Of a stretch of 64,000 bases of DNA, positions 27,100-64,000 are shown one piece after another. The position numbers were made by a program, and so were the translations under genes. Numbering within the stretch: position 1 is the stretch's first letter; the number at the start of each line of letters is the position of its first letter. The notes under the pieces are model-generated. The model saw only the letters and a program-made list of their open reading frames with translations. It was not told the origin of the DNA and ran no database searches. Location of the stretch: the NCBI GenBank assembly GCA_029204225.1, contig CM055100.1, positions 7,318,713 through 7,382,712 on the forward strand. The letters run 5' to 3'. Source of the DNA: Diphasiastrum complanatum. Its lineage: Eukaryota; Streptophyta; Lycopodiopsida; Lycopodiales; Lycopodiaceae.

Positions 27100-27719
27100 T
27101 AACTTTTATGTCATGAATGAAGGCACTGACATGTCATCGATAAAAGTGATAAAATTCAATGTAGAACGTAGAGAGAGAGTACTCATAGGGCCACACAAAT
27201 TACTATGTATCAGTTCTAGAATGGACTTAGATCTAGTGGCTTGTCCCTTTGGAAATCTTGATCTAAGTTGTTTGCCTAGTAGGCACATCTCACAGACTTG
27301 TCGAATGTTAGAGGAGACAACATTAAGATTTAAATCCTTGACCATGCTATTACGATGCATATACAAGATCGATCTCATGTTTAGTTGTCCTAATCTTCGA
27401 TGCCATAATTGGGCATTTGAAGTACTCACATTTTTGAAAGTGCATATTCATGACTCAGAATGTACAAATTACCTTCTCTGTTTGTAGAGAGGATTTCTTT
27501 ATCGCACTTGTCTAGAATGATATATTGTCTTGAATTGAACATGCTTCTGCAGCCTTGATCAGTGAACTTGCTGACTAACAATAAGTTTTTGGTCAGTTTG
27601 GGTATATACAGTACATCCTTGAGCAAAATCAATTTGTCATTTGGAAGATAAAGACGAATAGATCCTTTGCCTTCAATCTGCAGTACTAGACATACTTCAA
27701 ATCTGCTGGTGTGAGAGCT
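27100..27719 (-). pseudogene. copia C, downstream half (protease end to integrase start)
   Basis: Minus-strand translation continues the copia C protease: LRLYLPNDK-like residues, LLKDVLYIPKLTKNLLLVSK, then GAG-pre-integrase WHRRLGQLNM, the zinc-binding CEMCLLGKQ and integrase start ELIHSNLCGPM. It ends near 27,100. Its upstream half lies at 37,082-38,143, on the far side of element D. GAGCT at 27,715-27,719 is one copy of the target duplication made by D. Confidence 0.88.
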
Positions 27720-27910
27720 AGAATTAAAGTAGAATCATTGTGCTACTGTACTGTGGGTCCTATCAGCTGATAAGGATCAGTTGGCCTCACCACGAGGCAA
27801 GTCGATGGGACACGCATCCCGTCAACGACAACCTGGGTCATGCATGGGTTGCCTGAGTGAACAACTATATGTACAGTGTAATTTCATTTTGAGAAAAACA
27901 GTTGCTATGG
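27720..27910 (+). repeat. 5' LTR of copia D
   Basis: A short ~191-bp LTR matching 36,891-37,081 with about ten substitutions, mostly transitions. The ends set by the GAGCT duplication are AGAATTAAAG and GCTATG(G/T); canonical TG/CA is not preserved, so edges are uncertain by one or two bases. No clear Met-type primer site follows. Confidence 0.8.
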
Positions 27911-28369
27911 CCTTCAACTTCATTAAAAAATTTTAAAGTGAAAGTTGAGTTGGGTCCCTTCACAAGTGAAGAGTGAAGTTTCTTCAAGGTGAAGAAACAG
28001 TTCAAAAACAAGGAAAATCCCTATTTTTGGGTCCTTTGCCCGTTTTGACCCAAATGTAAGGCTATAACATCAAACGAAGGGCACCCAGACTGTACCTACA
28101 AGTACGGTACAGCAAAACAGAGTAATTGTAGTGGAGAAAGTGTTCGGAGTGCACCAAAAGTGATTTCACCATTCCATTGGGCACGTAGTTGGGAGTTGAC
28201 GACTGAGTGCATTTCGGAAGCAAAACCTTTCTTTTAAAAGCTATTTTTGACGCCGATTTGGCTTTCAAATTGGTGAAAAAGCGGCGAGTGGCCTGGTAAT
28301 GGAAAAAGTCCAAGTCATTATTTTCAACTTTTGACATCACAGTTGTCCTCGGCATACTGTTTTTAGCCT

Positions 28370-29418
28370 ATGACAGAAAGCTCAAGCAGTTTTGCGATGA
28401 CAAACATGGGAGAGTCCATTTTGAGTGAAAGTAGCAAATTGGACGGGATTTCCAACTATGCAGTGTGGAAATTCAAAATGAAAAACATACTGATGGAGAA
28501 AGACGTTTGGGAAGTCGTCACAGGTGATGAGAGAAGGCCGCCAAATGAAACAAATATCAAAGTGTTCGACAAAAAGATGAGAAAAGCTTTGACCCTCATT
28601 AATTTGTCAATGAAGGATCACATCTTACCCACATTTGTGATGCTATTACACCCAGACAGGCATGGGATGTGCTAAAGGAGCAGTTTGAGATGTCAAATCC
28701 GTCTAGAATCATGTTTTTGAAGTCAAAGTTGAATAGTGCCCGCATGGAGCAAGGAGAGCACATTCAGACGTACATGACCAGAATCAAGACAATGAGGTCT
28801 GAACTGCATTCTATTGGTGAGTGCATACGTGATGTGGAGCTGGTTCACAATGCATTGTGCGGCATTGCAGAATCCTATCAGATGTTTGTGAGTGGAATAT
28901 CATCAAGAGAAAGATTTGCAATCTTTGACGAGCTCATAGGAATCTTGATGCAGGAAGAGCAACGACGAGAAATAGTGAAAGCTAGATGTCAAAATACTGA
29001 CGATCAAGCACTTGCGACATGCCAAAAACAAGGCAAGGGCAAGGGCAAGAAGAAGTCTAAACAACAATTTGCCAAGTCTCAGGAGGATGACGGATCTTCC
29101 AGTAAGACCAAGAAGAAAGACAAGTGCTTCCATTGTGGTAAAAAGGGCCATTGGAAGAGTGATTGTCGCAAATTCCTGGCAGAACAAGGCAAGGGAAAAC
29201 CAAAACAAGCAGGCAACCTTGTCGATGACGGTGAGATTGAAGACTCTAATATCTTCATATCCGCATTGTCATCTAATCAAGATGATCAGGCATGTTATAT
29301 TGACTCGGGAGCCACAAGACACATGACAAGTAACAAGAATTGGTTCAGTAGCTTGAAAGTGTTGGATAATGGAACGATGAATCCAAGATGTATGAAGACA
29401 AGGATGCTGAGGAGATAG
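28370..29418 (+). pseudogene. copia D: gag and protease
   Basis: Gag begins MTESSSSFAMTNMGESILSE, with the core SNYAVWKFKMKNILMEKD. It frameshifts near 28,670 and resumes through LKEQFEMSNPSRIMFLKSKL. A Lys/Gly-rich stretch, a complete zinc knuckle CFHCGKKGHWKSDC (near 29,130) and the protease active-site segment CYIDSGATRHMTSNKNWF (near 29,295) follow. The frame then leaves the protease. Gag packages the RNA and the aspartic protease matures the polyprotein in active elements. Confidence 0.9.
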
Positions 29419-31129
29419 ACTACTCAATCTCAAGAGACAGGTTGCAAAGGTAGAGACAAACCTTTTGGTGCAAGAAGAATTGAAGTTGCAGGTGACAAAC
29501 TCAAGGAGAAGGATGTACCGTGGGAGAGATTTTCACCAGGAAGCTGATCACCTGACAGGAAGCTCCCTAAGTGGTTTGAGAGATTGTTGGAGAGTCGTGA
29601 CATGGATGACTTTCCAGGATCATCTAGCCAGGGAGAGCTACGAAGATCAACAATAGAGAAGACACAAACTGAAAGGTATGAAACAAATTATGCTCTCTTA
29701 TCTAGCACTATTCAAAGAAAAGGACCTTCGACTTATGGTGAAGCGAAGGATGATGACATTTGGGTCAAGGCCATGGGAGAGGAGATGGAGTCAATAACTA
29801 AGCATAGCACATGGGACTTAGCAGAACCACCAGTTGGCAAGAAACCCATTGGTTGCAAATGGGTATACAGGACTAAGTATCATGCAGATGGTAGTATAGC
29901 AAAGCACAAGGCAAGATTGGTGATCAAAGGGTATGCACAAAGTAAAGGCATCGACTATGAGAAGACCTTTGTGCCAGTATGTAAGTGGAATACTCTACGT
30001 CTACTTGTTGCTTTAGCTTCACATTTTGGTTGGCCTTTGCATCAGATGGATGTGAAATCTGCTTTTCTAAATGGTGAGTTAGAAGAAGAGGTGTTCATGG
30101 ATCAACCTGAAGGCTTTGTAACAAAGGGACAGGAGAATAAAGTATGTCGCTTGAAGAAAGCCCTTTATGGTCTTAAACAGGCACCACATACGTGGTATAG
30201 CAGGATTGATGCCTACTTTCATTTAAAGGGGATGGTGAGAACACACTTTGATCCAAATCTATATGTCTTATGCTTTGATGGTATGGTTGCTTTGATTGCT
30301 CTTTATGTTGATGACTTGATTATTATGGGAAATAATCAAGAGATGATAGATATGATCAAGAAAAGACCTCATGGAACAATTCAATATGACATATCTCAGC
30401 CTAATGCATTATTGGCTTGGAGTAGAGGTGTGGCAAAAAGGACACGAAGTGGGTTTAACACAGGTGAAGTATGTCAAAGAGTTGCTGCACAAGTTTAGGT
30501 TGCAGGATTGCAAACCAGTGAATACTCCCATTGAACCAGGTAAAAAGCTTTCTAAGCTTGATGAGTCACAGCCATTTGATGCTACGCTGTATAGGCAGTT
30601 AGTAGGGAGCTTGATTTACCTTACCATGACTAGACCAGATATATGCTATGGTGTTGGCATTGTAAGTCAGTTTATGGCAGCACCTACAAAAATGCATTGG
30701 AAGGCAGCTAAACGCATTCTGCGTTATGTGAAAGGCACTTCAGATTATGGATTGATTTACAGGAAGCATGATGGGTTACATGAGTTGTGTGGCTATGTAG
30801 ATGCGGATTGGGGAGATGACTATGATGATTGTAGATCCACCACATGGTATGTATTCTAGTTTTGTGGTAGTTGCTTTTCCTGGTCTAGTAAGAAGCAAAG
30901 TACAATTCCTCTATCCACCACAGAAGCAGAGTATAAGACAATGTGTAGTGCAACATAGGAAGCTATATGGTTTAGACAAATCTTGGAAGAAGTTGGCATG
31001 AAACAGAAAAATCTCACAACATTACATAGCAACAGTCAGAGTGGCATTCAGCTAGCAAAGAATCCAGTATTCCATGTGAGAACCAAACACATTAAAATTC
31101 AGTATCACTTTATACGTGAGAGGCTGCTA
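29419..31129 (+). pseudogene. copia D: RT and N-terminal part of RNase H
   Basis: After a poorly conserved linker the RT starts near 29,720 with DDDIWVKAMGEEMESITKHS and continues through GCKWVYRTKYHADGS, QMDVKSAFLNGELEEEVFMD, LYGLKQAP and the catalytic LYVDDLIIMG (near 30,304). One frameshift occurs near 30,370. RNase H follows (YVDADWGDDYDDCRST, TTEAEYKTMCSA with an in-frame stop, RTKHIKIQYHFIRERLLS) and is interrupted at 31,130 by element E. No integrase core lies between protease and RT, so that segment has been deleted. Confidence 0.9.
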
Positions 31130-31134
31130 AGTCG
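31130..31134 (+). other. target-site duplication AGTCG (left) of element E
   Basis: AGTCG precedes TGTGAAAATTG of E's 5' LTR and is repeated at 36,707-36,711 just after the 3' LTR. A five-base duplication is typical of copia integration. Confidence 0.95.
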
Positions 31135-31781
31135 TGTGAAAATTGTCAACATTTCCTTGTCTAGTTTTAGGCCAAAATTGCTAAAAATGGCACATAGTTT
31201 AGGATCTGACTTTTCACACGTGTGAAACAGGTCTAGATATTTTTAGTAAGTGTATTTTTTCAGTATGAAGAAGTGTCAAACTTCAAGACCTTCAAAATGA
31301 GTCCATTTTCATGTATTTTGGACATATATGCCAATTTTACCTATATAGGGCATATTTTAGGTAAGGAGGGTCTAGAGAGAGGAGAGAGAGTCATCTCTCT
31401 CAGCTATATATAGCAGGTAGGCCGTGGAGAAACAGGTTGGAGCAGATCCATTGTATTCATTTGCTTAATGAGAGATTTTTCTATTGGGTTCTCCTTCCAT
31501 TGTTGGCATTGTGTAGTGATTGAGTTCAAGCTTTGTGTGTATGATCTTAGGTGCTTTCCAAAAGTGGTAGGCTGATGTATTATGGACTGTATAATGCTAT
31601 TTTGGGCCGCACTTGATGTTTATGGAAGTTTCCATTTGTGATAAATGTTTTTTGATCAAGTTCTTTGCATTCTAGGTAGCATAGAATGTGTTGCCAATTC
31701 CTAGCTTATGTAGTTTGGAGTGCAAGCATTCAAGCCAATGATCTTGGAGTTTAGATCCACTTAGGATCTGTATTTTTCACA
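31135..31781 (+). repeat. 5' LTR of element E
   Basis: A 647-bp LTR from TGTGAAAATTG to ATTTTTCACA. By eye it is identical, with no gap, to 36,060-36,706. It carries the palindrome TTCACACGTGTGAA (31,213-31,226) and a TATA-like TATATATA (about 31,405), a plausible promoter. Identical LTRs indicate a very recent insertion. Confidence 0.95.
31213..31412 (+). promoter_or_regulatory. E LTR promoter: G-box palindrome plus TATA
   Basis: TTCACACGTGTGAA is a perfect 14-bp palindrome centred on CACGTG, the plant G-box bound by bZIP and bHLH factors. It lies about 180 bp before a TATATATA element that follows a GA-rich tract. The promoter role is inferred from position in the LTR. Confidence 0.55.
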
Positions 31782-32953
31782 TGGTATCAGAGCTGGTTGG
31801 CTTCTATTTACAGTAAGTATTCCATTTTTGGTGATATTTGGATGTTTGATCAAGTTCTAGCATGATTTTGCATTGCTTTGTTGATCAAATCTTACTAACC
31901 TTTGTTTTGTGAGTTGAACTTGTGGATCAAAAGCATATTTCAGGTCTATTGAAGATCAGAGGCTGAAAAGAAACTATTTTGGATCAGATCATAACACCTA
32001 ATCATTTGTGATTGTGAGGCTTGTGCATATTCAATACTAACAATGTTCTTTTCAATCCTATTGTTGACAATCTCCATTCTTGGATGAACACTCTCCTTAA
32101 GTGGATGAAACTTCTCCTTAAGTGGATGACAAATGCTCTTTTGAGTGAGTTGTAATTCTCCTAAAGGCTGAGCAAAGCTCCCATTTGGATGAAAGATCCC
32201 CTTTTTTGGGTGAACATATTGTAAGCTCCATTGTGAAGAGCATATTGTAAAGATTGTCATCAATTTTGGCATAAATATTGGTGTACTTTGTTGAGCATGT
32301 AAGTAACTCTCCTTATGTAATTTGATTGGAGCATTTGCTGGAAGGTGTTAACCATTATGCAAGTGTGTTTTCAGGTTCTTAACAGGTTGAGGAACATTCT
32401 CATGTGAAGTGATCTTAGATCTACATCTAAACACCAAGATTTGACAAGATAGTGAAGCTAGTCTTGTGATTCACTAAGTGTGCTCATTCATTCACCTCTA
32501 AATCTTGTATTTATCACTTGCTGGAGTTTATAAACTTTTAGAAGTGTGGTTTACATGTGGTTTTACAGGTTGAATCAATATCTTAGTGTGTTGATCATAT
32601 GTTGATCAAGTTTGTTCATTACTAGGTAATCTTGGCATCCTAGTTTTGGGTATTTTCTAAGAATGCAAGTAACTCTTCACACCATAACTTGATTTGGTCA
32701 CTTGCTGGAAAGTTTGAGAGCTTAAGCAAGAGTGTGTTCAGGTTGGTTTGATTTTGTAATCCATTCTTAGTGTGTGCAAAGTGTTGCATGTGTTTCAATC
32801 TTCCTTTCTATGCTTGGAAACCATCTAGGTTCAAGATAGAAGTGTTTTAGGGTCCTAAATCTTCATAGATCTCTTTATCTATCATTTGTTGAGAGAAAAG
32901 TGAGTGCTAAGTGCTTTAGGACAAAACCTAAAAGTTGAAGAAACATTAGAATC
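31782..32953 (+). other. E primer-binding site and ~1.17-kb leader
   Basis: TGGTATCAGAGCTGG (31,782-31,796) directly follows the LTR. The leader before the gag ATG is unusually long. It contains repeated units around GTAACTCTYC...GCTGGAA...GTGTTCAGGTT (near 32,293, 32,520 and 32,668) and a cluster CTCCTTAAGTGGATGAA near 32,095. No protein is encoded. Confidence 0.8.
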
Positions 32954-35900
32954 ATGGCTTCCAATGGTGGGATCATGCTAGAGTCTAGTGAAAGGTTGAG
33001 TTCATCAAACTACTCTACTTGGAAAGTGAGGATGGAGTCCTTACTTGAGTTGAATGAACTCATGGACATAGTTGCAGAAATTGAAGAGAGACCTCTCACA
33101 CTTCAAGAGCAACAAAGGTTTGATAAGAAGGCCAAAAGGGCTCTTCATATCATTAAAATGAATGTTACAAATGAACTTCTCAAGGAAGTTGGAAAGTGTC
33201 AAAGTGCAAGTGAGGCATGGAATGCCTTAAAGAAGCTCTTTGAATCAAAGTCCACATCTAGGGTATTGACCCTAAGGAGACAAATATTTTCTAGTAGGCA
33301 AAGAGAGGGTGAAAGTGCTCATGCATTTATCTTGAGAGTTAAGTCCCTAAGTGATGATTTAGCATGCATTGATGAGAACATAAAAGATGGTGAAATAGTC
33401 CAAGTTATGTTGAATGGTTTGCTAAATGAACATGCTAACCTTGTGCAAAGTTTTGCCATTCAAAGAGTCTTGCCAAGTGTGGTTGACTTGCAAGAAATCT
33501 TATTGGCTGAAGAACATAGGTTGCAATCAAAGCTTGATGGTGCATCCTTGCAAGGTGGAGGTGAAGAGGCTTTCTTCACAAAAGGCAAATTCAAGGGCAA
33601 AGGTAAAGGCAAAGGAAAATGGTCCAAAGGTGGTAACTTTGATCATGATGATCACTCTTCCTCTTCCTCTTCTACTAAGAACAATAAGTCAAAGTTCAAG
33701 TGCTTTTATTGTGGGATAAAAGGACATTTTGCAAATGAATGCCATAAGAAACAAAATGCTAGATCTAGGTTGAGATCTAATGTACTTCTTGGAGATGATA
33801 ATTGTTGTGCTAACTTGGCAAGCTTTGGTGAATCTATGGTCAATTTTTTGGATCCATTGGATCTTGAAGATGCACTAGTGTTACCTACTAGTCATATGGA
33901 GTCATGTGGAGCTAAATTAGCATCATGTTTGTACTCTTCTACTCATGGACTTCCAAGGCTTGGTGGTTCTTCAATGGTGCTAGATGGCAAGTGCAAAAAT
34001 GGAAAAGGTAAGGAAGGAGCTAACTTCATCAATGGAGTTGATGAAGATTCTTCTTTGGAAGTGATTGTTGCTAATGACTTGTTTGTTCATATGGAAAAAG
34101 ATGGAGATGCTAAGTGTCATTCTTTGCAAGAAGATGGTTGTTCTTCTAATTCTTTTCATATTGATGTATGTAATCATGTGGGAAAAGATGATGGTGCTTT
34201 GAGCATGCTTGAAGGAAATGGTTCTTTTACATCTTTTTGTGATAAAGTCATTTGTGCAACAAGTGGTGTCACATTTCTTCATAAAAAGAGTAGATCAAAG
34301 GTTTCTATCATGAGACTTGGTGAGGGAGATCACAAGTCAAAAGGAAGAGAAGTATGTGAAGTGTTCAAAGTAGGATGTACTTTGAATGATGTTTTTATGA
34401 ACGATAGTGAGGAAGAATCATTATCATATGACTCATTACCTAAATCATTGAGTAGAAGTTCATGTTTGAAAAGAGAGAGTACTTCAATCACTCTTATGTT
34501 GAAGGTACTAAGGATTCTTTTCTTGGCTTCTAATATTCAAGAGTCTTCTACTTCTTATGGTGCAACTATCAAGAGGGAGGTTTCTAACTTTTGTGGTGCT
34601 AGCATTAAGAGGGAGTCTTGTGAAGGAAAGGGCAATGGAAGAGTGGTTCTTGGGAAGATCCAAAGCATGGATCTAACATCTCTTCATCAACTCAAAGCAT
34701 TCTATGATTGTGGTGGATTGTTCATTCATGGTCAAGATGGCAAAAGGTTGGTTGAAGAAGACTACATGGAGCAACTCAAGTGGCAACTTCTTCAAGGCAA
34801 GGGAGATATCATTGGTGAGCTTATTGAGGTTTGTTATGAACTCAAGAGGGCTATTTTGATTAGGTTTGATACTCATCTTCACCTACTCTACTTCATGTTA
34901 AATGGAAATGTTGGAATCTATCTTTTGGTTTATGATGGTGGCATTGTTTTCACTAACTATAGTGAAGGGTCAAATTTGAGCATTGATGAGATCTTGTGGG
35001 ATCTTAATCATGTGTTTGAGAGGGAGTATCTTCAGAGTTTCAGATCTGAAGATGTTCACATATGCAAGATCTTTGATGTCTTATTGGAAGATCAAGAGGT
35101 TGATCTTGGATTGCTTCATCAACACCAAGAGACAAGTGGCAATTCGAAGCTAGTGAAAAGCATCAAAGAAGAGACAAATGGTCAAGGCATTTTGGATCCG
35201 TTTTTACAGGTTCTTGAAGGTTCAAGTAAGGTCTTTGAAGCTGCAAGGAAGTGTCTTCTTACTCTACCTCACTTGCCTAATCTCATGTATGAACATTGTT
35301 ATGTCAATGTGTTGAAATTGTCAAATTTCAATAAAACTAGTTCCATAGTTTTGCATCCTTTGGATCTTGGAGATGGAATAGTTATCATTGCTGGTTTGTA
35401 TGATCAAGTACATGAATTCATTCAGATCTTGAAAGGTATTGAAGTGGTCAATATGTTTTCTTTTGAACAAAGTTCAAGATCTAGTATTCTAGTGTTGGCA
35501 AATTGGCAACTTGTTGACATTGTAGGATCAAGCGTTGTGTGCAAATCTTGTGGAGGTACTTCAAGTATTTCAAGTTCAGGTTTTGGTCATTCAAATGGAG
35601 TAGGGAACACATCTTTTTGGCATTCATTCACTCAAAGGCTTTCATGGATTGAAGATCTACAAAGGCAAGGTGGTGATGGAAGTTCATTCATGGAGATACA
35701 TGTTGCATTCACTATATGTATAGTGAAATGTGGAGGAGGCATGCAAACACTTGTTGATCACTTTCATTTACAACTTGTTTGCTGCTATTTTACAGAGAAA
35801 CCAGAGATGGATACATGGAGGAATTCATTAATTGAGATTCTATGTTCTTTTACATGTACCATTTTTATGATTCTATGTAAAATTGATGTAAGAAATAGTG

Positions 35901-36046
35901 AAGCATCCTATATGGACACTATTATCTATATCAATTATGTTGTGTCCTATTTTGTACATATTAGGATCCTTGAGAAGAGATCTATTCTGATGATGGAGAT
36001 CATTCTTAAGTTGGAACAAAGTAGTGTTGTAAAACTAGCAAGTTAA
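32954..36046 (+). CDS. element E gag fused to a novel ~765-aa region (1,030 codons)
   Basis: A single uninterrupted frame. Residues 1-190 are copia gag (SSNYSTWKVRMESLLELNEL, AWNALKKLFESKSTSRVLTL, GLLNEHANLVQSF). Residues 209-223 are Lys/Gly-rich, and C250-C253-H258-C263 forms a complete zinc knuckle CFYCGIKGHFANEC, so the gag part should bind RNA and form particles. From about residue 265 to 1,030 I find no protease DSGA, integrase, RT YVDD or RNase H motif. This part is Ser- and Cys-rich, has paired GATIKRE/GASIKRE segments near 540-560, and ends with hydrophobic stretches (CSFTCTIFMILCKI; TIIYINYVVSYFVHI) that might span a membrane. The function is unknown. It sits between a primer-binding site and a polypurine tract, so it is the element's own gene. 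The start follows gag alignment with relatives. The open frame and identical LTRs suggest it was recently mobile with enzymes supplied in trans. Confidence 0.85.
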   Translation: MASNGGIMLESSERLSSSNYSTWKVRMESLLELNELMDIVAEIEERPLTLQEQQRFDKKAKRALHIIKMNVTNELLKEVGKCQSASEAWNALKKLFESKSTSRVLTLRRQIFSSRQREGESAHAFILRVKSLSDDLACIDENIKDGEIVQVMLNGLLNEHANLVQSFAIQRVLPSVVDLQEILLAEEHRLQSKLDGASLQGGGEEAFFTKGKFKGKGKGKGKWSKGGNFDHDDHSSSSSSTKNNKSKFKCFYCGIKGHFANECHKKQNARSRLRSNVLLGDDNCCANLASFGESMVNFLDPLDLEDALVLPTSHMESCGAKLASCLYSSTHGLPRLGGSSMVLDGKCKNGKGKEGANFINGVDEDSSLEVIVANDLFVHMEKDGDAKCHSLQEDGCSSNSFHIDVCNHVGKDDGALSMLEGNGSFTSFCDKVICATSGVTFLHKKSRSKVSIMRLGEGDHKSKGREVCEVFKVGCTLNDVFMNDSEEESLSYDSLPKSLSRSSCLKRESTSITLMLKVLRILFLASNIQESSTSYGATIKREVSNFCGASIKRESCEGKGNGRVVLGKIQSMDLTSLHQLKAFYDCGGLFIHGQDGKRLVEEDYMEQLKWQLLQGKGDIIGELIEVCYELKRAILIRFDTHLHLLYFMLNGNVGIYLLVYDGGIVFTNYSEGSNLSIDEILWDLNHVFEREYLQSFRSEDVHICKIFDVLLEDQEVDLGLLHQHQETSGNSKLVKSIKEETNGQGILDPFLQVLEGSSKVFEAARKCLLTLPHLPNLMYEHCYVNVLKLSNFNKTSSIVLHPLDLGDGIVIIAGLYDQVHEFIQILKGIEVVNMFSFEQSSRSSILVLANWQLVDIVGSSVVCKSCGGTSSISSSGFGHSNGVGNTSFWHSFTQRLSWIEDLQRQGGDGSSFMEIHVAFTICIVKCGGGMQTLVDHFHLQLVCCYFTEKPEMDTWRNSLIEILCSFTCTIFMILCKIDVRNSEASYMDTIIYINYVVSYFVHIRILEKRSILMMEIILKLEQSSVVKLAS

Positions 36047-36059
36047 GTTGAAGAGGGAG
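36047..36059 (+). other. polypurine tract of element E
   Basis: The purine-rich GTTGAAGAGGGAG lies directly before the 3' LTR and immediately after the ORF stop. It primes plus-strand DNA synthesis. Confidence 0.85.
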
Positions 36060-36706
36060 TGTGAAAATTGTCAACATTTCCTTGTCTAGTTTTAGGCCAA
36101 AATTGCTAAAAATGGCACATAGTTTAGGATCTGACTTTTCACACGTGTGAAACAGGTCTAGATATTTTTAGTAAGTGTATTTTTTCAGTATGAAGAAGTG
36201 TCAAACTTCAAGACCTTCAAAATGAGTCCATTTTCATGTATTTTGGACATATATGCCAATTTTACCTATATAGGGCATATTTTAGGTAAGGAGGGTCTAG
36301 AGAGAGGAGAGAGAGTCATCTCTCTCAGCTATATATAGCAGGTAGGCCGTGGAGAAACAGGTTGGAGCAGATCCATTGTATTCATTTGCTTAATGAGAGA
36401 TTTTTCTATTGGGTTCTCCTTCCATTGTTGGCATTGTGTAGTGATTGAGTTCAAGCTTTGTGTGTATGATCTTAGGTGCTTTCCAAAAGTGGTAGGCTGA
36501 TGTATTATGGACTGTATAATGCTATTTTGGGCCGCACTTGATGTTTATGGAAGTTTCCATTTGTGATAAATGTTTTTTGATCAAGTTCTTTGCATTCTAG
36601 GTAGCATAGAATGTGTTGCCAATTCCTAGCTTATGTAGTTTGGAGTGCAAGCATTCAAGCCAATGATCTTGGAGTTTAGATCCACTTAGGATCTGTATTT
36701 TTCACA
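36060..36706 (+). repeat. 3' LTR of element E
   Basis: A 647-bp copy of 31,135-31,781, identical by eye. It is followed by the second AGTCG duplication at 36,707-36,711. Confidence 0.95.
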
Positions 36707-36711
36707 AGTCG

Positions 36712-36890
36712 TGAAATTCATGTTGTTCATTGTAGCACAGAAGAACAACTAGCTGATATTTTCACTAAGCCACTTATTGGAGAAAAGTTTGATAAGTTTA
36801 GATCAAAGTTTTTTGTACTTAAAGTTTGTTGACTTTAAAGCTATGTAAATGACTGTATAAAAAGTAGACTCTACTTTAAGGGAGAGAGTT
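36712..36890 (+). pseudogene. copia D: C-terminal RNase H tail and polypurine tract
   Basis: D resumes after E with REIHVVHCSTEEQLADIFTK, then PLIGEKFDKFRSKFFVLKVC and a stop (about 36,832). This joins directly to RERLLS before 31,130. A purine tract AAGGGAGAGAG precedes the 3' LTR. Confidence 0.92.
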
Positions 36891-37081
36891 AGAATTAAAG
36901 TAGAATCACTATGCTACTATACTGTGGGTCTTATCAGTTGATAAGGATCAGTTGGCCTCACCACGAGGCAAGTCGACGGGACACGCATCCCGTCAACAGA
37001 AACCTGGGTCATGCATGGGTTGCCTGAGTGAAGAACTATATGTACAGTGTAATTTCATTTTGAGAAATACAGTTGCTATGT
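36891..37081 (+). repeat. 3' LTR of copia D
   Basis: Partner of 27,720-27,910, followed by GAGCT at 37,082-37,086, the second copy of D's target duplication. About 5% divergence between the two LTRs makes D older than E. Confidence 0.82.
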
Positions 37082-40566: not shown

Positions 40567-41428
40567 CGATATGTTGAAAATTGTCACTTCTCACTTGACA
40601 TTGTTATTGTAAATAAAGATCAATCATTAGAACAATGTTCATGATCTAATTTCACACATGTGGAGCCTTTTCCCACATGTGAAACAAAGTACTTTTCATA
40701 CTTGTATATATCTATTTTGATTTTGTATTAGTCAAGTTAGTGTGAACATGATATGACTAGTTTTTAGTCAAGTTGACTAGTCACCTAGAAATTAGCTTTT
40801 CCTTGCATGTGCATGAGTAAATGCTCCCACATGGCAAATGGATGTTCACACACGTGTATAGAGTTCTAGAAGATAAGAGTTGACCATTTTCCTTAGATTC
40901 TATTTTGAAGGAAATATTCCTATATCCTAGGAGACTAGCTCTTTGGATTTTAGCCATATTCTAGAAGGTCAACTTTGGATAAGGATCAAGGATGGATCAA
41001 ATGGATAGATCTGAGTGATGTGTCACTCTTCACACGTGTGAACACATTCTGGACTGTACCAAACTCGTGGATGTACTAGATCTATAAAAGGATCATCATT
41101 TTGCTAATGAGATTGATGAGACTTTTGCATTCTACACTTTTGTGAGATTTCTAGTCAATAGAATTTTGTCTATGAATGATTGCTATCAAGAACAATAGTA
41201 CTTGTTGTTTCAGGTACAGGCTGTATTGTGGACAGTACTCCACACATGTGAGGCTTCCTTCACTAATTTATGATTTTTTGATCCATTGCTCTTGCTTAAA
41301 TCTAAGTGTAGTGAATCTAGACCAAGATCTAATGTGTAGAACTTGATAGATCCATTGATTAGGCAACCAATAACTCTCTATGATTGTTAAGTACAATCAT
41401 TATTGTCCTAAAAACTGAAATTTTATCA
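40567..41428 (+). repeat. 5' LTR of copia F with CGATA duplication
   Basis: CGATA at 40,567-40,571 is followed by the 857-bp LTR, TGTTGAAAATTGTC to TTTTATCA. CGATA recurs right after the 3' LTR at 43,590-43,594. Contains TTCACACGTGTGAA at 41,029-41,042 and related half-palindromes near 40,651 and 40,849. Confidence 0.9.
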
Positions 41429-42020
41429 TGGTATCAGAGCTAAGTAAGAGAGTGATCATTTGAATCATAAAACTTGCAAAGATCATTGGCAAAATTTGTT
41501 TTTGGCCAATACTAGTGAGGGCGAGTTCATCTAGAGTGATAGCTTGTTTCTATTTGGATCAAATCGACTTGGAGGCTGTGTATGTACTTTTCACACGTGT
41601 GAAACTGTACAACAACTTTCATTTCATGTTACTTTGTGTTTGTTGGTCCTAAAATCACAATTCTAGTTCATTTTTAGTGTTTTTTGAAGCATAGTATTGA
41701 TCTAGATTCAATCTAGCTAATGCCTATGACCATATAGAGTTTTGGATCATTGAAGCATTTCCTTTTGGAGTTTAAGATCAGATCTAAGAGGCTGATTTGT
41801 TCAGATCCTTAGTTGAAGTGAAATCTCTAAGAAAAGTGTAAAGCAAAAAATTTTGTGAGAGTGAAAGCTAGGAATTTTTGTCAAGATCTTTGTGTATCAT
41901 TCAAGCTTGTGTGCTAGTTGATAGAGACAAGGCTATAGGCAATCTTGTGAGATTTAGGCCTTTCATAGATCTTTAAAAATTCAGAAATCTTTGTGATTTT
42001 TGTAGAACATTCGTTCTACA
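41429..42020 (+). other. F primer-binding site, leader and pre-ATG hairpin
   Basis: TGGTATCAGAGC (41,429-41,440) starts the leader. TTCACACGTGTGAA occurs again at 41,590-41,603. The last 20 bases, TGTAGAAC-ATTC-GTTCTACA (42,001-42,020), form a perfect 8-bp stem with a four-base loop ending one base before the gag ATG. Confidence 0.8.
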
Positions 42021-42701
42021 ATGTCATCCATGGGTGGATATTTGTTGGAATCAAGTGAGATACTCACTTCCACAAATTATTCCATTTGGAAAGTGAGGAT
42101 GGAATCACTGCTGGTGATCCATGACCTCTTTGACATAATTCTAGGAGTTGAGGAAGAGCCTCAAGCTCCCCAAGAACAAATCAAATACAAGAAGAGAGCA
42201 AGATTAGCTCTACATTGCATAAAGTTGAATGTATGCAGCAATGACCTCTTGAAGGAGGTGTCTTCTTGTGCCTCATCCAAAGAGGCTTGGGATTCATTAA
42301 AGAGTATCTATGAATCCAATAACACTTCAAGAATCCTCATGCTAAGAAATCAAGTTTTTCAAAGCATGAAAGGAAGTGGAGAGAGTGGACAAGAGTATGT
42401 CTTTAGGATCAAATCTCTGAACAAGGAATTGAGTGCTATAGGAGAGAAGATCCAAGATCAAGAGCTAGTACAAATCATATTGAATGGCCTAGGTGATGAG
42501 TTCACCAACTTGGTCCAATCATTTTCTATTAAAGACAATCTTCCATCCATTGAAAAGTTGCACAATGTTCTTGTAGCCGAGGAGAGTAGACTTCTACACC
42601 TCAAGACAAGAATGGAAGGCATGTCACTTAATGGAGGAGATGAGAATGCAAATTTTACATCCAAAGGCAAGAAGAAACAACAAATAAAAATCAATCATTA
42701 A
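42021..42701 (+). CDS. copia F gag, truncated (226 aa)
   Basis: An open frame encoding copia gag: MSSMGGYLLESSEILTSTNY, then STNYSIWKVRMESLLVIHDL, LKEVSSCASSKEAWDSL, ILNGLGDEFTNLVQSF and AEESRLLHL. It stops before the zinc knuckle because of a deletion that joins GKKKQQ to sequence inside the 3' LTR, which supplies the last few codons (IKINH). The gag core is intact, but without the knuckle and pol the element cannot move by itself. Confidence 0.88.
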   Translation: MSSMGGYLLESSEILTSTNYSIWKVRMESLLVIHDLFDIILGVEEEPQAPQEQIKYKKRARLALHCIKLNVCSNDLLKEVSSCASSKEAWDSLKSIYESNNTSRILMLRNQVFQSMKGSGESGQEYVFRIKSLNKELSAIGEKIQDQELVQIILNGLGDEFTNLVQSFSIKDNLPSIEKLHNVLVAEESRLLHLKTRMEGMSLNGGDENANFTSKGKKKQQIKINH

Positions 42702-43594
42702 AACAATGTTCATGATCTGATTTCACACGTGTGGAGCCTGTTCCCGCGTGTGAAAGAAAGTACTTTTCATACTTGTATATATCTATTTTGATTTTGTATC
42801 AATCAAGTTATTGTGAACATGATATGACTAGTTTGATTTTGTATCAATCAAGTTAGTGTGAACATGATATGACTAGTTTGATTTTGTATCAATCAATTTA
42901 GTGTGAACATGATATGACTACTTTTTAGTCAAGTTGACTAGTCACCTAGAAATTAGCTTTTCCTTGCATGTGCCTGAGTAAATGCTCCCACATGGCAAGT
43001 GGATGTTCACACGTGTGTATAGAGTTCTAGAAGATAAGAGTTGACCATTTTCCTTAGATCCTATTTTGTAGGGAATATTCCTATATTCTAGGAGACTAGC
43101 TCTTTGGATTTTAGCCATATTCTAGAAGTTCAACTTTGGATAAGGATCAAGGATGGATCAAATGGATAGATCTGAGTGATGTGTCACTCTTCACACGTGT
43201 GAACACATGCTGGACTGTACCAAACTCGTGGATGTACTAGATCTATAAAAGGATCATCATTTTGCTAATGAGATTGATGAGACTTTTGCATTCTACACTT
43301 TTGTGAGATTTCTAGTCAATAGAATTGTGTCTATGAATGATTGCTATCAAGAACAATAGTACTTGTTGTTTCAGGTGCAGGCCATACTACGGATAGTACT
43401 CCACACGTGTGAGGCCGCCTTCACTAATTTATGATGTTTTGATCCATTGCTCTTGCTTAAATCTAAGTGTAGTGAATCTAGATCAAGATCTAATTTGTAG
43501 AACTTGATAGATCCATTAATTAAGCAACCAATAACTCTCTATGATTGTTAAGTACAATCATTATTGTCCTAAAAACTGAAATTTTATCACGATA
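42683..43594 (+). repeat. 3' LTR of copia F, head deleted, with CGATA
   Basis: Matches the 5' LTR from about its 45th base onward, ending TTTTATCA at 43,589, then CGATA. The first ~40 bp are missing at the gag junction. It carries three copies of a 45-bp unit at 42,787-42,921 (TTTGATTTTGTATCAATCAA start) where the 5' LTR has one. TTCACACGTGTGAA is at 43,190-43,203. Confidence 0.88.
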
Positions 43595-46859: not shown

Positions 46860-47190
46860 TTAAAACATGATGTTAAGCACATTACCAACAATTTTAAAGA
46901 GCTCCAAGAATTAACAAGTTCAATTCCAAACCTCCTTTGAGAATTTAGCACTCCAAACCGGGATGTAATTCCAAGTGCTTTGATCTTCCAATCCAATGTA
47001 GAGCTTGCCACCACTCCTATCCAAGACCGTATCTTAGCCAAGCTCTGATACCAATGTAATGACCATAAGGGATAACCCCTAAGATGAGGATAGGAGAACA
47101 CAATAGAAGAGACTATGGAGCCAAACCGCCCAACCAATCCTAGATCAAACATGGATCTAGCCCCCAAGCCATGCCATGTGAAAGCTAGAG
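46860..47190 (-). repeat. primer-binding site and LTR edge (minus strand)
   Basis: GCTCTGATACCA at 47,045-47,056 is the reverse complement of TGGTATCAGAGC. The adjacent TGTAATGACCATAAGGG starting at 47,057 reads as the edge of an LTR running rightward. It is truncated by copia I near 47,190. Confidence 0.5.
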
Positions 47191-48483
47191 GAAAAGAGTA
47201 TGATAGGAGGGTAAAGAAAGCTTTGCATGTGATCAAGATGAATGTGACTAATGAACTTCTCAAGGAAGTTGATAAGTGCACAACATCTAGTGAGGCTTGG
47301 AAATCTTTGAAGAAGGTTTATAAGTTCCAAGTCTACATCTAGGGTTCTAAACCTAAGGAGCTGAAATTTTCAAATTTTTCAAAAGAAGGATGTTTTGAAT
47401 GTTAAAGCTTTGAATGATGAATTAGCATGTATTGGTGAAAGCATTAAGGATGTGGAGCTTGTTCAAGTTGTTCTTAATGGCTTATTGGATGATCATGCTA
47501 ATTTTGTGCAAAGTGTTTCTATTCAAAAGATGTTTCCAAGTATGGAGGACTTGCAAGAGGTTTTGGTGGCTGAAGAATTTAGACTCCACGCAAGAGGAAG
47601 ATCATCTTCTACATCTCAAGTTGGAGAGGAGGAAGCTATGTTCTCAAGGTGCAAGTTCAAGTTCAAGGGCAAGGACAAAGACATGTGGTCTAAAGAACAA
47701 GATCAAGGTGAGTCATCTTCTTTTGAGGGTAAAAATGATAAGTCAAAGATGAAATGTTTCTATTGTGGAGTCAAAGGACATTTTCCTTGTGATTGGTTTA
47801 AGAAGAAAAAAGATTAAGGTGAGAAGCAATGCAATTTCACTTTTGATGAGGATGATGTTGATGAGCACAAGTCAAGTGGGTCTATTTTTATGTCTTATGT
47901 TTGTTAACCAATGATGGAGATATTGATCCATGATGGATTGATAGTGGAGCAAGCTTTCATATGACATGTCACAATGAGTACGTCTTCACTTCTTTGGTGT
48001 CTTATGAAAGAGAGAAGAAAGTCATCAACATGGCCAATGGTGGTAAAGTTATTATCAAGGGAATTGGTAGTATTCCTATTTTTCTCTCATCTACAAATAG
48101 GAGTATAAGCTTGAAGAATGTTTTGTTCGTACCTTCCACTACTAAGAATGTTCTTAGTGTATGTCAACTGGTTGGAAAAGGGGTTAAACTAGAATTTGTT
48201 GGTGATTCTTGCTTGATGGAAAGGAATATAGTCTTGATTGCCCAAGGCAAGAGACGAGGTGAGCTCTACAAACTTGATGGATATGTTGGTTCTAACTATG
48301 GTGGTTTGAAGGCAAAGAAGCAAGTTGGTGAGCTCGGTTCAATGTCAGTCACAAAGGTTGTCTTATTCTAGATCTAGCTCAAGATCTAAGATGCCATTTC
48401 ATTTATATGTTTGGATGTGCATTGTACTAGTTCTTTGAGTAATGGAGGAGCAAATATGCCTATCTTCTAAAGAGTAAGAAACG
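47190..48483 (+). pseudogene. copia I: gag, protease, integrase start
   Basis: Gag enters mid-domain with YDRRVKKALHVIKMNVTNEL, then frameshifts near 47,330-47,400. It continues through LNGLLDDHANFVQSVSIQK, the zinc knuckle CFYCGVKGHFPCDW (near 47,755) and a stop at 47,817. The protease segment WIDSGASFHMTCHNEY (near 47,935), NVLFVPSTTKNVLSVCQ and the pre-integrase GELYKLDGYVGSNYGG follow. The integrase is cut a few dozen residues in, just before an LTR. It is closely related to copia A on the other strand at 6.2-7.8 kb. Confidence 0.88.
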
Positions 48484-58878: not shown

Positions 58879-59919
58879 TCACAAATTACTATGATGAAGT
58901 TGGCATAATGCTGGAAAAGCGCCTTCCTCACAATCCGCAGACGTGGACGCCGAAGGAGCAATTTTTCTATCTCGGCTCAGTATCCGTCGCAGGCTAAACC
59001 GGCCGAGAGGAGATTTAGGGCACAGGCCACTGGAAGCTGAGGAATGGCCACTGCGGGAACAAGAGGCACACGTAGGGTCAGAACAAGGCCTTGGCAATTC
59101 AATAGTAAGGTGTGGTGGTACCCTCAGTGATCCCTCTCGTTGAGAAAACGACAAGGAGCTTAACTGGCCTTGCTGTTTGTTCAAGGTTTTGGATTCTGTT
59201 GCTGCAGGTTGCTGCAAACCCTCCAAATGAGTAACAGAGCTTATTCCCTGCACCTGCTGAAGCGCTGTCGCATCGGCATTCTCTTCTGACATTTGTGGTT
59301 GATGAGATCTTTCCTCTGACAGTAACACATTGTCTAAGCTGCTAAAATCGATAGAAACCGACGACGAGGTCGATTGAGGCAACAGGGAATTCCCCAGCGA
59401 ATCCATAATCGTGGAGCATTCTACAATCTCTGCTTTCGCAGTTGTAGTGGGCATTATGCTAACTCTGCACAAGGGGCAGGTTGAGTGAGATCTAAACCAC
59501 ATATCTATGCACTCTGTGTGAAACAAGTGGTTGCATGTTGGCAGCAGCCTCCCCGTCTCCTTTTCCTCAAACTCGCACAGACAAACCGCGCATTCTATTC
59601 CCTTTCTCATGGATTCTCCAGCATATGTAAAAGTGGGAAGTGACTCCACCACAGCCTTTTCAAGACCTGTAACCTCAATAGGCTCATCAATTGCGTAATT
59701 AAGCTCTTGCCGATGTTGGCTGAGTTGAGCGTTCCTCCAGAACCACTTGGCATAGAGATGCAAACAAATAATAAATATTACCACGGAGAATAGCACAACA
59801 ATCGCAGCTGTCATTATTCTAACGTTGGCCTCATCTCTGTTTGAGTGATGAGAAAAAGCGTCTGTGACTGTTTGGATGGTAGCAGAACCTGCAGGAGGAG
59901 ATACTCTCAAATTAGACAT
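58879..59919 (-). CDS. ATL-type RING-H2 E3 ubiquitin ligase, membrane-anchored
   Basis: An intact, intronless 346-residue frame, as usual for plant ATL genes. Residues about 34-57 (TAAIVVLFSVVIFIICLHLY) form one membrane span. The ATL GLD-type motif appears as GLEKAVVESLPTFTY (85-99). The RING-H2 domain has all eight ligands: C110, C113, C129, H131, H134, C137, C148, C151 (ECAVCLCEF, CNHLFHTECIDMWF, CPLC). It should recruit an E2 enzyme and ubiquitinate membrane-associated or signalling targets; the substrate is unknown. The C-terminal ~190 residues are Ser-rich and end with LGRFSLRRILSRDRK and an acidic patch. Frames opposite it are shadows. A 71-codon upstream frame overlaps the start. Confidence 0.95.
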   Translation of the reverse strand: MSNLRVSPPAGSATIQTVTDAFSHHSNRDEANVRIMTAAIVVLFSVVIFIICLHLYAKWFWRNAQLSQHRQELNYAIDEPIEVTGLEKAVVESLPTFTYAGESMRKGIECAVCLCEFEEKETGRLLPTCNHLFHTECIDMWFRSHSTCPLCRVSIMPTTTAKAEIVECSTIMDSLGNSLLPQSTSSSVSIDFSSLDNVLLSEERSHQPQMSEENADATALQQVQGISSVTHLEGLQQPAATESKTLNKQQGQLSSLSFSQREGSLRVPPHLTIELPRPCSDPTCASCSRSGHSSASSGLCPKSPLGRFSLRRILSRDRKIAPSASTSADCEEGAFPALCQLHHSNL

Positions 59920-60122
59920 TGCTCCTGATATGGCTTAAACTTTGATTTCCTTCGATATTGTTGCGATGATCTGAGTGAAGAGACGGCCCTGCTCTGGTTT
60001 TTCCCCTGTTTCTTGCCTCCTCTTTGCACTCTCTTCGACCTTATACTACACTTGCATGTTCTCGGAAATGGATCAATGGCCAGATCTACAAAGAATATCA
60101 CGAAAATGATAGTCTGCGTCAA
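59907..60122 (-). promoter_or_regulatory. possible overlapping upstream ORF of the RING-H2 gene
   Basis: An upstream ATG at 60,122 opens a 71-codon Lys/Arg-rich frame ending at 59,907, 13 bases past the RING-H2 start codon and out of frame with it. If transcription begins upstream of 60,122 this uORF would repress the main start. The transcript start is not known. Confidence 0.35.
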
Positions 60123-62560: not shown

Positions 62561-63280
62561 ATGTCTTGTGTTTTTTTAATACACAGAGGTGCCTTTATCA
62601 TTTCTCCTACTGCATACGACTTTGTTTTTCAACAGCTGGCCAATCTCCCTCAGAAACGTGGCAAGGCGGCTCGCCCCTTCCCCTCATTCAGGTCCCCCCG
62701 CTCTGCTCTTGACAGGTTCGACCCTAATAATCTCCCGCTCAACCCTATGCTTCCTCTTCCGACCTCTGTCCATCTGGCTCTTAGCTATTTAGATGCTCTC
62801 AAAAACAAATCAGGTCCTCCTGCTCCCCCTCCCTCCTCTGAGACAAATGGGTGAACATGAAGAAGGTTAATATCTTTGTTGAATCTAGAAACGGCACTCT
62901 CACATTTTCCTTTTTATCGGACCTGGAAGCCCTCAATACTTCGCATGCTGCTCTGTTTGAAACTTCTATAGTCATTTTTTTTCGGAGCTCTTCTTACTTA
63001 CGTCAAAGAGTTTATCAACCATTCTATTGTTTCTCACTTCAAATTCTTTCTCAGCTTCGAGTCACTGGAAACCAACTATTTCCTTCTCCATTTCGGCTCT
63101 AGAGCCGACGTTCATGAGCTTCTTCTTTCCTCTCCTTTTAGATTCAATGATTCTCTTGTTTCAGCTCTTAAATTTAGCAAGAACTTCAATATTCAAAATG
63201 CTTGATCCATTTCTCTTCCTGTCCATTTATCGCTCTCTTTCTTTCTTGCTAGATTCAAATGCCTCTTTTTTGGTCTGGTG
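62561..63280 (+). pseudogene. possible LINE ORF1 fragment
   Basis: Plus-strand frames starting MSCVFLIHRGAFIISPTAYD continue after a stop into VNIFVESRNGTLTFSFLSDL. With one frameshift they then read FESLETNYFLLHFGSRADVH and ELLLSSPFRFNDSLVSALKF. This arrangement resembles the DUF4283-like RNA-binding part of plant LINE ORF1, but the match is from memory of the pattern and weak. It ends where copia J begins near 63,280. Confidence 0.35.
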
Positions 63281-63866
63281 TCTAGTTTAGATGAAGTTTT
63301 GTGGCAAGATGGAGATGGAGGCTCATTCATGGAGTGTCATAGTGGATACACGGCAACAAAGGACAAAGAAGGAGGAGACATGCAAGCAAATGATGATCAC
63401 TCACATTTATTGTTTGTTTGTTGTATATTTCTAGAGAGTTGGAAGCATGGTGGAATCATTTCATTTACATTCTATTTGATTCTTCATGTTCTAGTCACAT
63501 TTTTACATGTAAAATCGATGTAAGAAATAGTGAAGCATCCCAAGTGGACACTATTCTCTATATCAATTATGGTTTTTTGAGAATTACATGATCATTGAAA
63601 GGAAATCTATTCTTAGGAAGAAGATCATTCTTATAATGGATCAAAGTTCTATGGTCAAAACTATGCTAGGAGCAAACATATTGAGGTGCAATATCATTTT
63701 GTGAGGGAGTAAGTCAATACAAAGGAGGTGGAGCTTCAACATGTGTCCTCAAGGGAATGTATAGCTGATATCTTCACCAAAGCATTGGGAAAGGACTTGT
63801 TCATGAAGCATAGGACATCACTTGGAGTGTTATCAAAGTCCATGCTAAAACTAGTTGAAAAGAGAG
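63281..63866 (+). pseudogene. copia J: region shared with E, RNase H tail, polypurine tract
   Basis: 63,290-63,650 is related to the 3' end of element E's ORF (for example ATGTAAGAAATAGTGAAGCA, found at 35,886 and 63,519). Next comes a copia RNase H tail across a stop: RSKHIEVQYHFVRE, ELQHVSSRECIADIFTKALG and KDLFMKHRTSLGVLSK. The purine tract GAAAAGAGAG ends at 63,866. The rest of pol is not present in the window. Confidence 0.8.
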
Positions 63867-64000
63867 TGTGAAAGATTCAACTAGTTTGATCATATTTGGC
63901 GAATTGAGACCAACTTTGTTTTTAGACTTAGAGATTGACTTTTCAAAGTTCATTAGTCTAAATTTCATTTGAATAAACACTTTTTGAAAGTGTGGGAAAG
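63867..64000 (+). repeat. 3' LTR of copia J (start only)
   Basis: Begins TGTGAAAGATTCAACTAG after the polypurine tract and runs off the window. It matches the head of the LTR at 48,484, including GAGATTGACTTTTCAAAGTT-type sequence. Confidence 0.85.

What the first reader, a model, noticed from the sequence alone, without database searches (positions are those of the whole stretch)
32954..36046. Young LTR element whose gag is fused to ~765 residues of unknown protein in place of pol
The element has a primer-binding site, polypurine tract, AGTCG duplication and LTRs identical by eye, yet its single 1,030-codon frame carries only gag plus a long region without protease, integrase, RT or RNase H motifs. 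A 3-kb frame open in AT-rich DNA suggests recent constraint or very recent origin. It may be a non-autonomous parasite with a new trans-acting or membrane-associated function, or a captured host sequence.
Basis: partly seen in the sequence, partly recalled or inferred. Interest (0 to 1): 0.82.

Follow-up and report, generated by a model that had tools for sequence, protein, structure and literature searches.

The report
Jumping gene with a fossil polymerase
A young, highly copied plant jumping gene makes only its coat protein and probably borrows everything else from an intact relative found in the same genome; the long "unknown" part of its gene is at least partly a dead reverse transcriptase that stays readable although its protein sequence no longer seems to matter.

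Summary
Window 31135-36706 is a 5,572-bp Copia LTR element: identical 647-bp LTRs, AGTCG duplication, PBS, PPT, one 1,030-codon frame; 1,342 related 3' ends exist in the genome. The tail (X) is at least partly dead pol: residues ~598-690 match the reverse transcriptase of an autonomous relative (z 7.7), YVDD now YDGG; residues 269-276 look like an integrase relic; a gag-protease-X sister shows the protease was deleted. The rest of X is unrecognisable. X shows no residue-level constraint (N/S against neutral 1.01; gag 0.21-0.42), yet its frame stays open (0 stops where chance placement gives 7-9.5; P 0.0002-0.0004). The autonomous partner was found: intact protease-integrase-RT-RNase H, gag 99.1-99.5% and leader end 99.3-100% identical, LTRs 82-85% with the same termini. 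Another subset carries a different gag on the same X: gag is exchanged by recombination. It works like wheat RLG_Quinta (GAG plus DUF1), but is Copia. Host capture and a conserved trans-acting or membrane protein are not supported. Counter-evidence: a derivative found at two places has a truncated, broken X.

The parts
31130..31134 (.). target site duplication AGTCG, left copy
31135..31781 (+). 5' LTR, 647 bp, identical to the 3' LTR
31782..31793 (+). primer binding site TGGTATCAGAGC
   Evidence: that it pairs with an initiator tRNA-Met is recalled
31782..32953 (+). leader, 1,172 nt; its last 260-276 nt are 99.3-100% identical to 5 of 5 autonomous copies read
32954..36046 (+). single 1,030-codon frame gag-X
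32954..33757 (+). gag: Retrotran_gag_2 (residues 27-192) and CCHC knuckle (249-263); 99.1-99.5% identical to gag of 5 of 5 autonomous copies read, over 797 nt
33758..33781 (+). residues 269-276 ARSRLRSN: likely relic of the integrase zinc motif (read by eye), where the protease region was deleted (compare ...AKSKELPYARSRLRSN in L070)
33815..33987 (+). c-block: moved or duplicated piece related to the X core of other families (74% nt to L039)
33988..34744 (+). unrecognised part of X (residues ~346-597)
34745..35023 (+). diverged reverse transcriptase segment (residues ~598-690); catalytic YVDD replaced by YDGG at 34931-34942
   Evidence: an extension ~30 residues upstream is suggested by the sister's blastp alignment but is not significant on its own
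35034..36037 (+). X core, shared with the older L039/L040/L041 elements, where it lies between an RT-start remnant and an RNase H-end remnant
36050..36059 (+). polypurine tract GAAGAGGGAG
36060..36706 (+). 3' LTR, 647 bp
36707..36711 (.). target site duplication AGTCG, right copy

Best explanation
The element is a young semi-autonomous (gag-coding, pol-less) Copia LTR retrotransposon. Shown: it shares LTR ends, polypurine tract, leader end and an almost identical gag with an intact autonomous Copia family in the same genome. Its tail X stands where pol stood and contains a drifted piece of reverse transcriptase and a likely integrase relic. X is kept open but its residues are free to change. 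Copies with the same X carry two very different gags, so gag has been exchanged by recombination. Inferred: its RNA is translated into Gag-X, the Gag part builds particles, the partner supplies protease, integrase, RT and RNase H in trans, and the shared leader and LTR ends let the partner's machinery package, copy and insert it. Inferred: the rest of X is the drifted remainder of pol. Inferred: the frame is kept open for the RNA's sake (for example to avoid nonsense-mediated decay through a 2-kb 3' UTR behind gag), not for the protein made from it.
For: Anatomy. Recent burst: the 40 scored ORF hits (window copy included; 4,477 first-look candidates) are all about 100% over the whole frame; 8 of 8 LTR pairs in hand, the window's included, have identical mates and matching duplications (picked as best LTR matches, so biased to young). 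1,342 places match the 3' end junction with at most 2 mismatches, sister families included. Partner: 40 scored hits for an RT-start query, 25 near 100% (these include the recombinants L079 and L094); 9 of 10 loci read have intact RT-RNase H; 6 of these 9 are open over the whole stretch read, 1,044 codons; L086 has Pol_BBD, gag_pre-integrs, rve, SH3 and RVT_2 2-243/244. In 5 of 5 autonomous copies gag is 99.1-99.5% and leader end 99.3-100% identical; the 3' LTRs of 2 copies 82.5-84.9% with the same termini. RT fossil: residues 598-700 against the partner's RT-RNase H, Smith-Waterman 80, shuffles 33.0+-6.1, 0 of 400; residues 560-700 against the whole partner pol, 89, shuffles 36.1+-5.5, 0 of 500; blastp E 3e-6 to the partner RT and 0.001 to another Copia RT (database of three sequences). 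Path of loss: L068/L070 = gag-protease-integrase relic-X. No residue constraint: X against L079 N 100, S 39, ratio to neutral 1.01; gag A against gag B 0.21 and 0.30, P<1e-9; differences from the sister majority, X1' N81/S19 and X core N65/S24, near neutral. Frame selection: 202 changes and 0 stops, random placement mean 9.5, 1 of 5,000 with none; likewise with other relatives; the three indels shared by all three sister copies are 9, 3 and 9 nt, while 17 of 23 private ones are not multiples of three. gag exchange.
Against: Residues 277-597 and 701-1030 show no detectable similarity to pol, nor does the X core of L039 or L040, so the pol origin of most of X is inferred from position and similar length. 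The sister's RT segment scores more weakly (L079 X z 2.7, P 0.0125; L068 E 0.002, L070 E 0.07 to another Copia RT). Plain NG86 ratios for the X core are 0.59-0.80 against three sister copies and 0.63 for X against L079, before the transition bias is allowed for. Derivatives L072/L074 share a truncated X with a broken frame, so an open X is not always needed. No transcription, translation or transposition data exist here. LTRs differ by 15-17% from the partner; its PBS was not read. Frame selection rests on a few relatives.
Confidence: 0.8

Rival explanations
1. Most of X (residues 277-597 and 701-1030) is captured foreign or host sequence, into which or beside which an RT piece survived; the element is a Bs1-like transducing element.
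For: Those parts have no detectable similarity to INT, RT or RNase H of the partner. X has coding-like codon usage in its frame.
Against: No significant Pfam, NCBIfam or PDB sequence match. X is collinear with pol, with a likely integrase relic at its start and an RT piece inside; from the YMEQ motif to the end it is 423 residues against 394 for intact RT-RNase H. No host gene copy was seen, but the many element copies mask such a search.
Confidence: 0.25
2. X encodes a fast-evolving functional protein (trans-acting or membrane-associated) under positive or relaxed selection.
For: The frame is kept open. Fixed differences in X1' lean to nonsynonymous (N81/S19, expected 72/28).
Against: Changes fall about evenly on codon positions (45/43/34; X1' 34/36/30); tblastx between X cores is about equally good in all three frames; a derivative with broken X is present at two places.
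Confidence: 0.08
3. X is plain junk whose open frame is only a by-product of recency.
For: The seven other best-matching copies differ from the window copy by 4 nt each, and L072/L074 spread with a broken X.
Against: Between diverged relatives chance placement of the differences gives 7-9.5 stops against 0 seen (P 0.0002-0.0004); L079, 88% identical in X, is also open; shared indels are in frame.
Confidence: 0.1

Closest known systems
RLG_Quinta / RLG_Cereba pair of wheat and oat (PMC11302176; passages seen)
   Same: Non-autonomous element whose single ORF is GAG plus a tail of unknown function (DUF1); autonomous partner in the same genome with matching LTR ends and PBS; two lineages with different gag on otherwise similar sequence, explained by template switching.
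   Different: Quinta is centromeric and belongs with Cereba, a Gypsy family (the class is recalled from the RLG code), with gag lineages ~65% identical; here Copia, gag of one subset is 99% identical to the partner, the tail is partly identified as dead RT, and its lack of residue constraint is measured.
TR-GAG elements (Chaparro 2015, not held; AT5TE33540 described in PMC8704663, passages seen)
   Same: Two LTRs around a single ORF with gag; moves without its own pol; autonomous relative in the same family.
   Different: The frame runs ~765 codons past gag. The 562-aa ORF of AT5TE33540 may also carry a tail; not tested here.
Semi-autonomous RLG_Sabrina_SA and RLG_WHAM (PMC9744471; passages seen)
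   Same: High-copy elements that keep gag-protease and lack RT and INT, with a proposed autonomous partner.
   Different: Gypsy; protease kept. The sister family L068/L070 here keeps gag-protease too.
Bs1 of maize (gene transduction; mentioned in PMC7264820, first of three parts read)
   Same: LTR element that carries sequence other than its own genes; gag-like part and lack of RT are recalled.
   Different: Bs1 carries host gene pieces; none was found here.
BARE-2 of barley (seen as a mention in the passages of PMC9744471, and PMC8704663)
   Same: Parasitic element that leans on an autonomous relative for a missing part.
   Different: BARE-2 lacks gag and keeps its other genes; here the reverse.

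Membership tests
Ty1/Copia LTR retrotransposon | Copia-type gag (Retrotran_gag_2) with CCHC knuckle | tested here: met
   gag E 1e-23; zf-CCHC 20.6 bits against a cut-off of 20.8, marginal
Ty1/Copia LTR retrotransposon | LTRs, 5-bp duplication, PBS after the 5' LTR, PPT before the 3' LTR | tested here: met
Ty1/Copia LTR retrotransposon | own pol in the order PR-INT-RT-RH | tested here: not met
   only a likely INT relic and a drifted RT piece. It is a pol-less derivative; the relatives L079 (partial RT) and L086 have the Copia order
TR-GAG | two LTRs and a single ORF coding for gag only | tested here: inconclusive
   Single ORF with gag met, but the ORF is ~3.8 times the length of gag; the size limit of the class was not checked (original paper not held)
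RLG_Quinta-like semi-autonomous element (functional class) | gag plus non-pol tail in one ORF, with an autonomous partner sharing LTR termini | tested here: met
RLG_Quinta family by descent | Gypsy-type gag and LTRs | tested here: not met
   gag is Copia-type; no direct comparison with Quinta sequences was made
Autonomous/non-autonomous pair | same PBS in both partners | not tested
   the partner's 5' LTR/PBS junction was not fetched
Autonomous/non-autonomous pair | same LTR termini and PPT | tested here: met
   2 of 2 partner 3' LTRs read
Autonomous/non-autonomous pair | mobilisation in trans shown by experiment | not testable with these tools
   no expression or mobility data
Bs1-like transducing element | tail homologous to a host gene | tested here: inconclusive
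   no significant Pfam or PDB match; a genome search is masked by element copies

The most novel reading that the evidence does not exclude
Frame-only selection: in this element lineage a former pol region of ~760 codons has lost all residue-level constraint, but its reading frame is selected to stay open because ribosomes must travel through it to protect or route the genomic RNA. The 'proteins of unknown function' fused to gag in semi-autonomous plant elements would then be translated spacers, not proteins with a job.
Probability: 0.4. Interest if true: 0.75.

Novelty: new variant of a known kind. Interest (0 to 1): 0.52.

Why it matters
Elements that keep gag but lack RT and integrase are among the most abundant retrotransposons of wheat (PMC9744471, passages), and at least one such tail is on record as a domain of unknown function (RLG_Quinta DUF1). 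Here a tail of that sort is partly traced to dead reverse transcriptase and shown to lack residue constraint while its frame is kept. That gives a testable explanation for such tails. The intact partner, the gag-protease intermediate, two gag types and a gag mosaic, all in one genome, also make loss of pol and exchange of gag with the partner traceable step by step.

Tried and rejected
Captured host gene as the main reading: no support in Pfam, NCBIfam or PDB. Fold of X: single-sequence AlphaFold2 gave mean pLDDT 31.9 for X, but only 39.8 for gag as a control, so it says nothing either way; no fold search was run. First comparisons of the window's X with other Copia RT-RNase H found nothing (in one search my window pieces were also out of frame), and I first took X for foreign; the close partner RT changed that. 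First partner search by RNase H end plus LTR start found one place only, which looks like a family variant and was not read; the partner's RNase H end differs there. The shorter pattern gave 89 exact places (my count of the list), of which 2 were read (L041, an X-bearing element; L042, an ordinary Copia RNase H), neither the partner. Donor of gag B: 20 of 40 listed gag-B loci were checked and 20 of 20 are joined to X, so the donor was not found. A gapped pattern for a diverged gag-X fusion gave 0 matches. The NG86 omega of X against L079 was 0.63; with the observed transition bias the ratio is 1.01. Searches failed on my wrong frame and were repeated in frame (108, 119); RVT_2 in L079 stops at profile position 101 and Pfam sees no RT in X itself. 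The first stop simulation used a wrong offset and was redone; broke off half-way and was finished. Genome-search calls not answered because the machine was busy: 8, 16, 20, 23, 27, 30, 38, 44, 47, 50, 51, 54, 57, 59, 63, 65, 67, 70, 71, 77, 81, 83, 88, 90; the copy-count pattern first sent did not complete and was replaced by another. One search was this report in a wrong format.
Full report
What is there. The finding lies inside a complete LTR element at 31135-36706 (+). Both LTRs are 647 bp and identical; AGTCG flanks the element; TGGTATCAGAGC follows the 5' LTR; GAAGAGGGAG precedes the 3' LTR. One frame of 1,030 codons (32954-36046) begins with Copia-type gag (Pfam Retrotran_gag_2, residues 27-192, E 1e-23) and a CCHC knuckle just below its cut-off; profile and PDB sequence searches find nothing significant in the ~765 residues after it. 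Shuffled DNA of that tail (X) has on average 57.5 in-frame stops, the frame has none. The element sits in the RNase H end of an older Copia (nested insertion; reading).

How many and how young. The genome is 1.745 Gb in 5,176 contigs. The 40 scored hits to the frame, the window's own copy among them, are about 100% identical over its whole length; 40 is the scoring limit, with 4,477 first-look candidates. The 3' end/PPT/LTR junction occurs 1,342 times with at most 2 mismatches, sister families included. Eight of 8 LTR pairs in hand (the window's and seven others) have identical mates and matching 5-bp duplications; they were picked as the best LTR matches, so they lean to the youngest. [quoted passage not shown] Eight of 8 best-matching ORF copies are open; one is the window's, the other seven differ from it by 4 nt each. 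Of 8 copies I chose, spaced, from the roughly 100 exact matches listed of the 1,342, 5 of 8 are open over the whole ~3.1 kb read (four gag-X, and L079) and 3 of 8 are not: L080 and L083 are broken sister-type copies, and L076 holds only the last 0.3 kb of X.

What the tail is. A sister family was found through X (41 places; four loci read). L068 and L070 read gag - zinc knuckle - protease region (Pol_BBD, E 1e-23 and 2e-21) - integrase relic ending ARSRLRSN - X - PPT - LTR; L071 shows X onward, and L069 holds only a 0.3-kb piece of X. I read '...AKSKELPYARSRLRSN' by eye as the end of the integrase zinc motif, compared with the integrase of L040. In the window the knuckle is joined straight to ARSRLRSN, so the protease region was deleted and residues 269-276 are a likely integrase relic. 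A search with the RT start of another relative, L079, then gave 40 scored hits, 25 of them near 100% (L079 itself and the recombinant L094 are among them). Nine of 10 loci read carry an intact RT-RNase H with YVDD; 6 of those 9 are open over the whole 3.1 kb read and 3 of 9 have a break upstream of RT. L086 has Pol_BBD, gag_pre-integrs, rve, SH3 and RVT_2 2-243 of 244. Against this partner, residues 598-700 of the window score 80 where shuffles give 33.0+-6.1 (0 of 400; one of 18 segment tests); residues 560-700 against its whole pol score 89 where shuffles give 36.1+-5.5 (0 of 500), and the alignment falls in RT, with YDGG in the place of YVDD. blastp gives E 3e-6 to the partner RT and 0.001 to the RT of another Copia in the window; the sister's segment gives 0.002 (L068) and 0.07 (L070) to the latter; these E-values are for a database of three sequences. 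Residues 277-597 and 701-1030 show nothing against INT, RT or RNase H, and neither does the X core of L039 or L040; X of L079 scores weakly (z 2.7). That the rest is drifted pol too is inference: it is collinear, and from the YMEQ motif to the end X has 423 residues against 394 of RT-RNase H. Part of X (35034-36037) also occurs in older elements L039-L041, between an RT-start remnant and an RNase H-end remnant. A ~170-bp piece near the start of X is a moved or duplicated part of that core.

How X evolves. gag is under purifying selection: gag A against gag B, N/S ratio to neutral 0.21 and 0.30 (P<1e-9); against L040 0.42. X is not: window against L079, N 100 and S 39, ratio 1.01; X core against L040, 1.16. 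Differences from the sister majority are X1' N81/S19 (expected 72/28) and X core N65/S24 (expected 64.9/24.1). Changes on the window side of the comparison with L039, L040, L041 and the window relic at 63 kb are N96/S24 (expected 89.5/30.5), spread 45/43/34 over codon positions. tblastx between X cores is about equally good in all three frames. Plain NG86, which ignores transition bias, gives X core 0.93 (L040), 0.85 (L039), X1' 0.94-1.05 and X core 0.59-0.80 against three sister copies, 0.63 against L079, and gag 0.18 (L040) and 0.36 (L068). Yet the frame is kept: 202 differences from the sister majority, no stop on either side, random placement mean 9.5, 1 of 5,000 with none; 139 differences from L079, expected 7.2, P 0.0004; 122 changes in the L039-L041 comparison, expected 7.2, P 0.0002, with one stop in the mixed other-side string. 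The three indels shared by all three sister copies are 9, 3 and 9 nt; of 23 private ones 17 are not multiples of three. Against this: L072 and L074, another derivative, have lost most of X and its frame in the same way at two places (2 of 4 loci read in that round). That fits a need for openness only while X is long, but it also weakens the claim.

Partner and recombination. In 5 of 5 autonomous copies read, gag is 99.1-99.5% identical to the window's over 797 nt and the last 260-276 nt of the leader 99.3-100%; their 3' LTRs (2 read) are 82.5-84.9% identical with the same termini and PPT. So gag and leader end were exchanged recently between elements whose LTRs had long diverged; the direction is not settled. 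Another subset (6 of 19 leaders compared; gag pieces L043-L046) has the same LTR, leader start and X but gag B (dS about 1.0-1.25 from gag A over residues 1-240, while residues 283-562 of L043 are identical); L047 is a gag A/B mosaic. Twenty of 20 gag-B loci checked are joined to X. L079 and L094 are partner/X recombinants joined at the shared YMEQ motif; the L079 copy also carries gag A (99.0% over 409 nt) and lacks a recognisable 5' LTR in the stretch read.

How it most likely works. Shown: the anatomy, the partner, the exchange of gag, the RT fossil, the relaxed residues with an open frame. Inferred: translation to Gag-X, assembly by Gag, enzymes from the partner in trans, shared leader and LTR ends as the handles, and RNA-level selection for the open frame. 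I put the semi-autonomous reading at about 0.9, pol as the source of most of X at about 0.55 (lowered a little on re-check, since the supported RT segment is ~95 rather than ~125 residues; the capture rival rises to 0.25), and frame-only selection at about 0.4.

Comparison with what is known. The closest case is RLG_Quinta/RLG_Cereba: GAG plus a tail of unknown function in one ORF, a partner with the same LTR ends, and two lineages with swapped gag (PMC11302176, passages). TR-GAG (PMC8704663, passages; PMC9784723, passages) and RLG_Sabrina_SA/WHAM (PMC9744471, passages) are the same functional class; Bs1 and additional ORFs are reviewed in PMC7264820 (first of three parts read). By descent this is Copia, so not a Quinta. 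The listings of my nine searches of the held library and the passages read showed no report of a gag tail traced to dead RT with a measured lack of residue constraint, but most subscription papers are not held and most listed papers were not opened.

Verdict: real, well supported, a new variant of a known kind. I see no sign that the tail is a new protein family; the open but unconstrained frame is the interesting part.

Noticed in passing
window 40611-43166 (+): A short LTR-gag-LTR element (repeat pairs 93-95% alike; gag frame 42006-42701 running into the 3' repeat): looks like a classical TR-GAG with gag about 52% identical to the one studied.
   Followed up: no
window 63266-63868 (+): 3' relic of an L040-type element: X core, RNase H end, PPT, LTR start.
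   Followed up: partly
window 7741-6173 (-) and 47103-48371 (+): Relics with related gag (pieces 42-73% aa identical) followed by protease, the first also by integrase.
   Followed up: no
window 27713-37080: Host Copia of the nested insertion: repeats 27713-27909 and 36884-37080 (94%), gag and RT between, interrupted by the element.
   Followed up: no
L072 and L074 (C1:37.156 Mb, C18:38.913 Mb): Derivative of the sister family with X truncated and out of frame, the same deletion at two places. L073, whose hit ends at the same query position, is not truncated.
   Followed up: partly
L016 and L030: Same 3' flank after the element on contig C60 and on C9: perhaps a haplotig or duplicate, so copy counts may be inflated.
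   Followed up: no
L069 1844-2146: A 0.3-kb piece of X (87%) alone in other sequence.
   Followed up: no
window 58879-59934 (-): 351-codon frame with a RING-H2-like finger after a hydrophobic stretch; by eye an ATL-type ubiquitin ligase (recalled, no search run).
   Followed up: no
window 1102-1857: Three tandem copies of a 252-bp unit (98% and 76% to the first).
   Followed up: no
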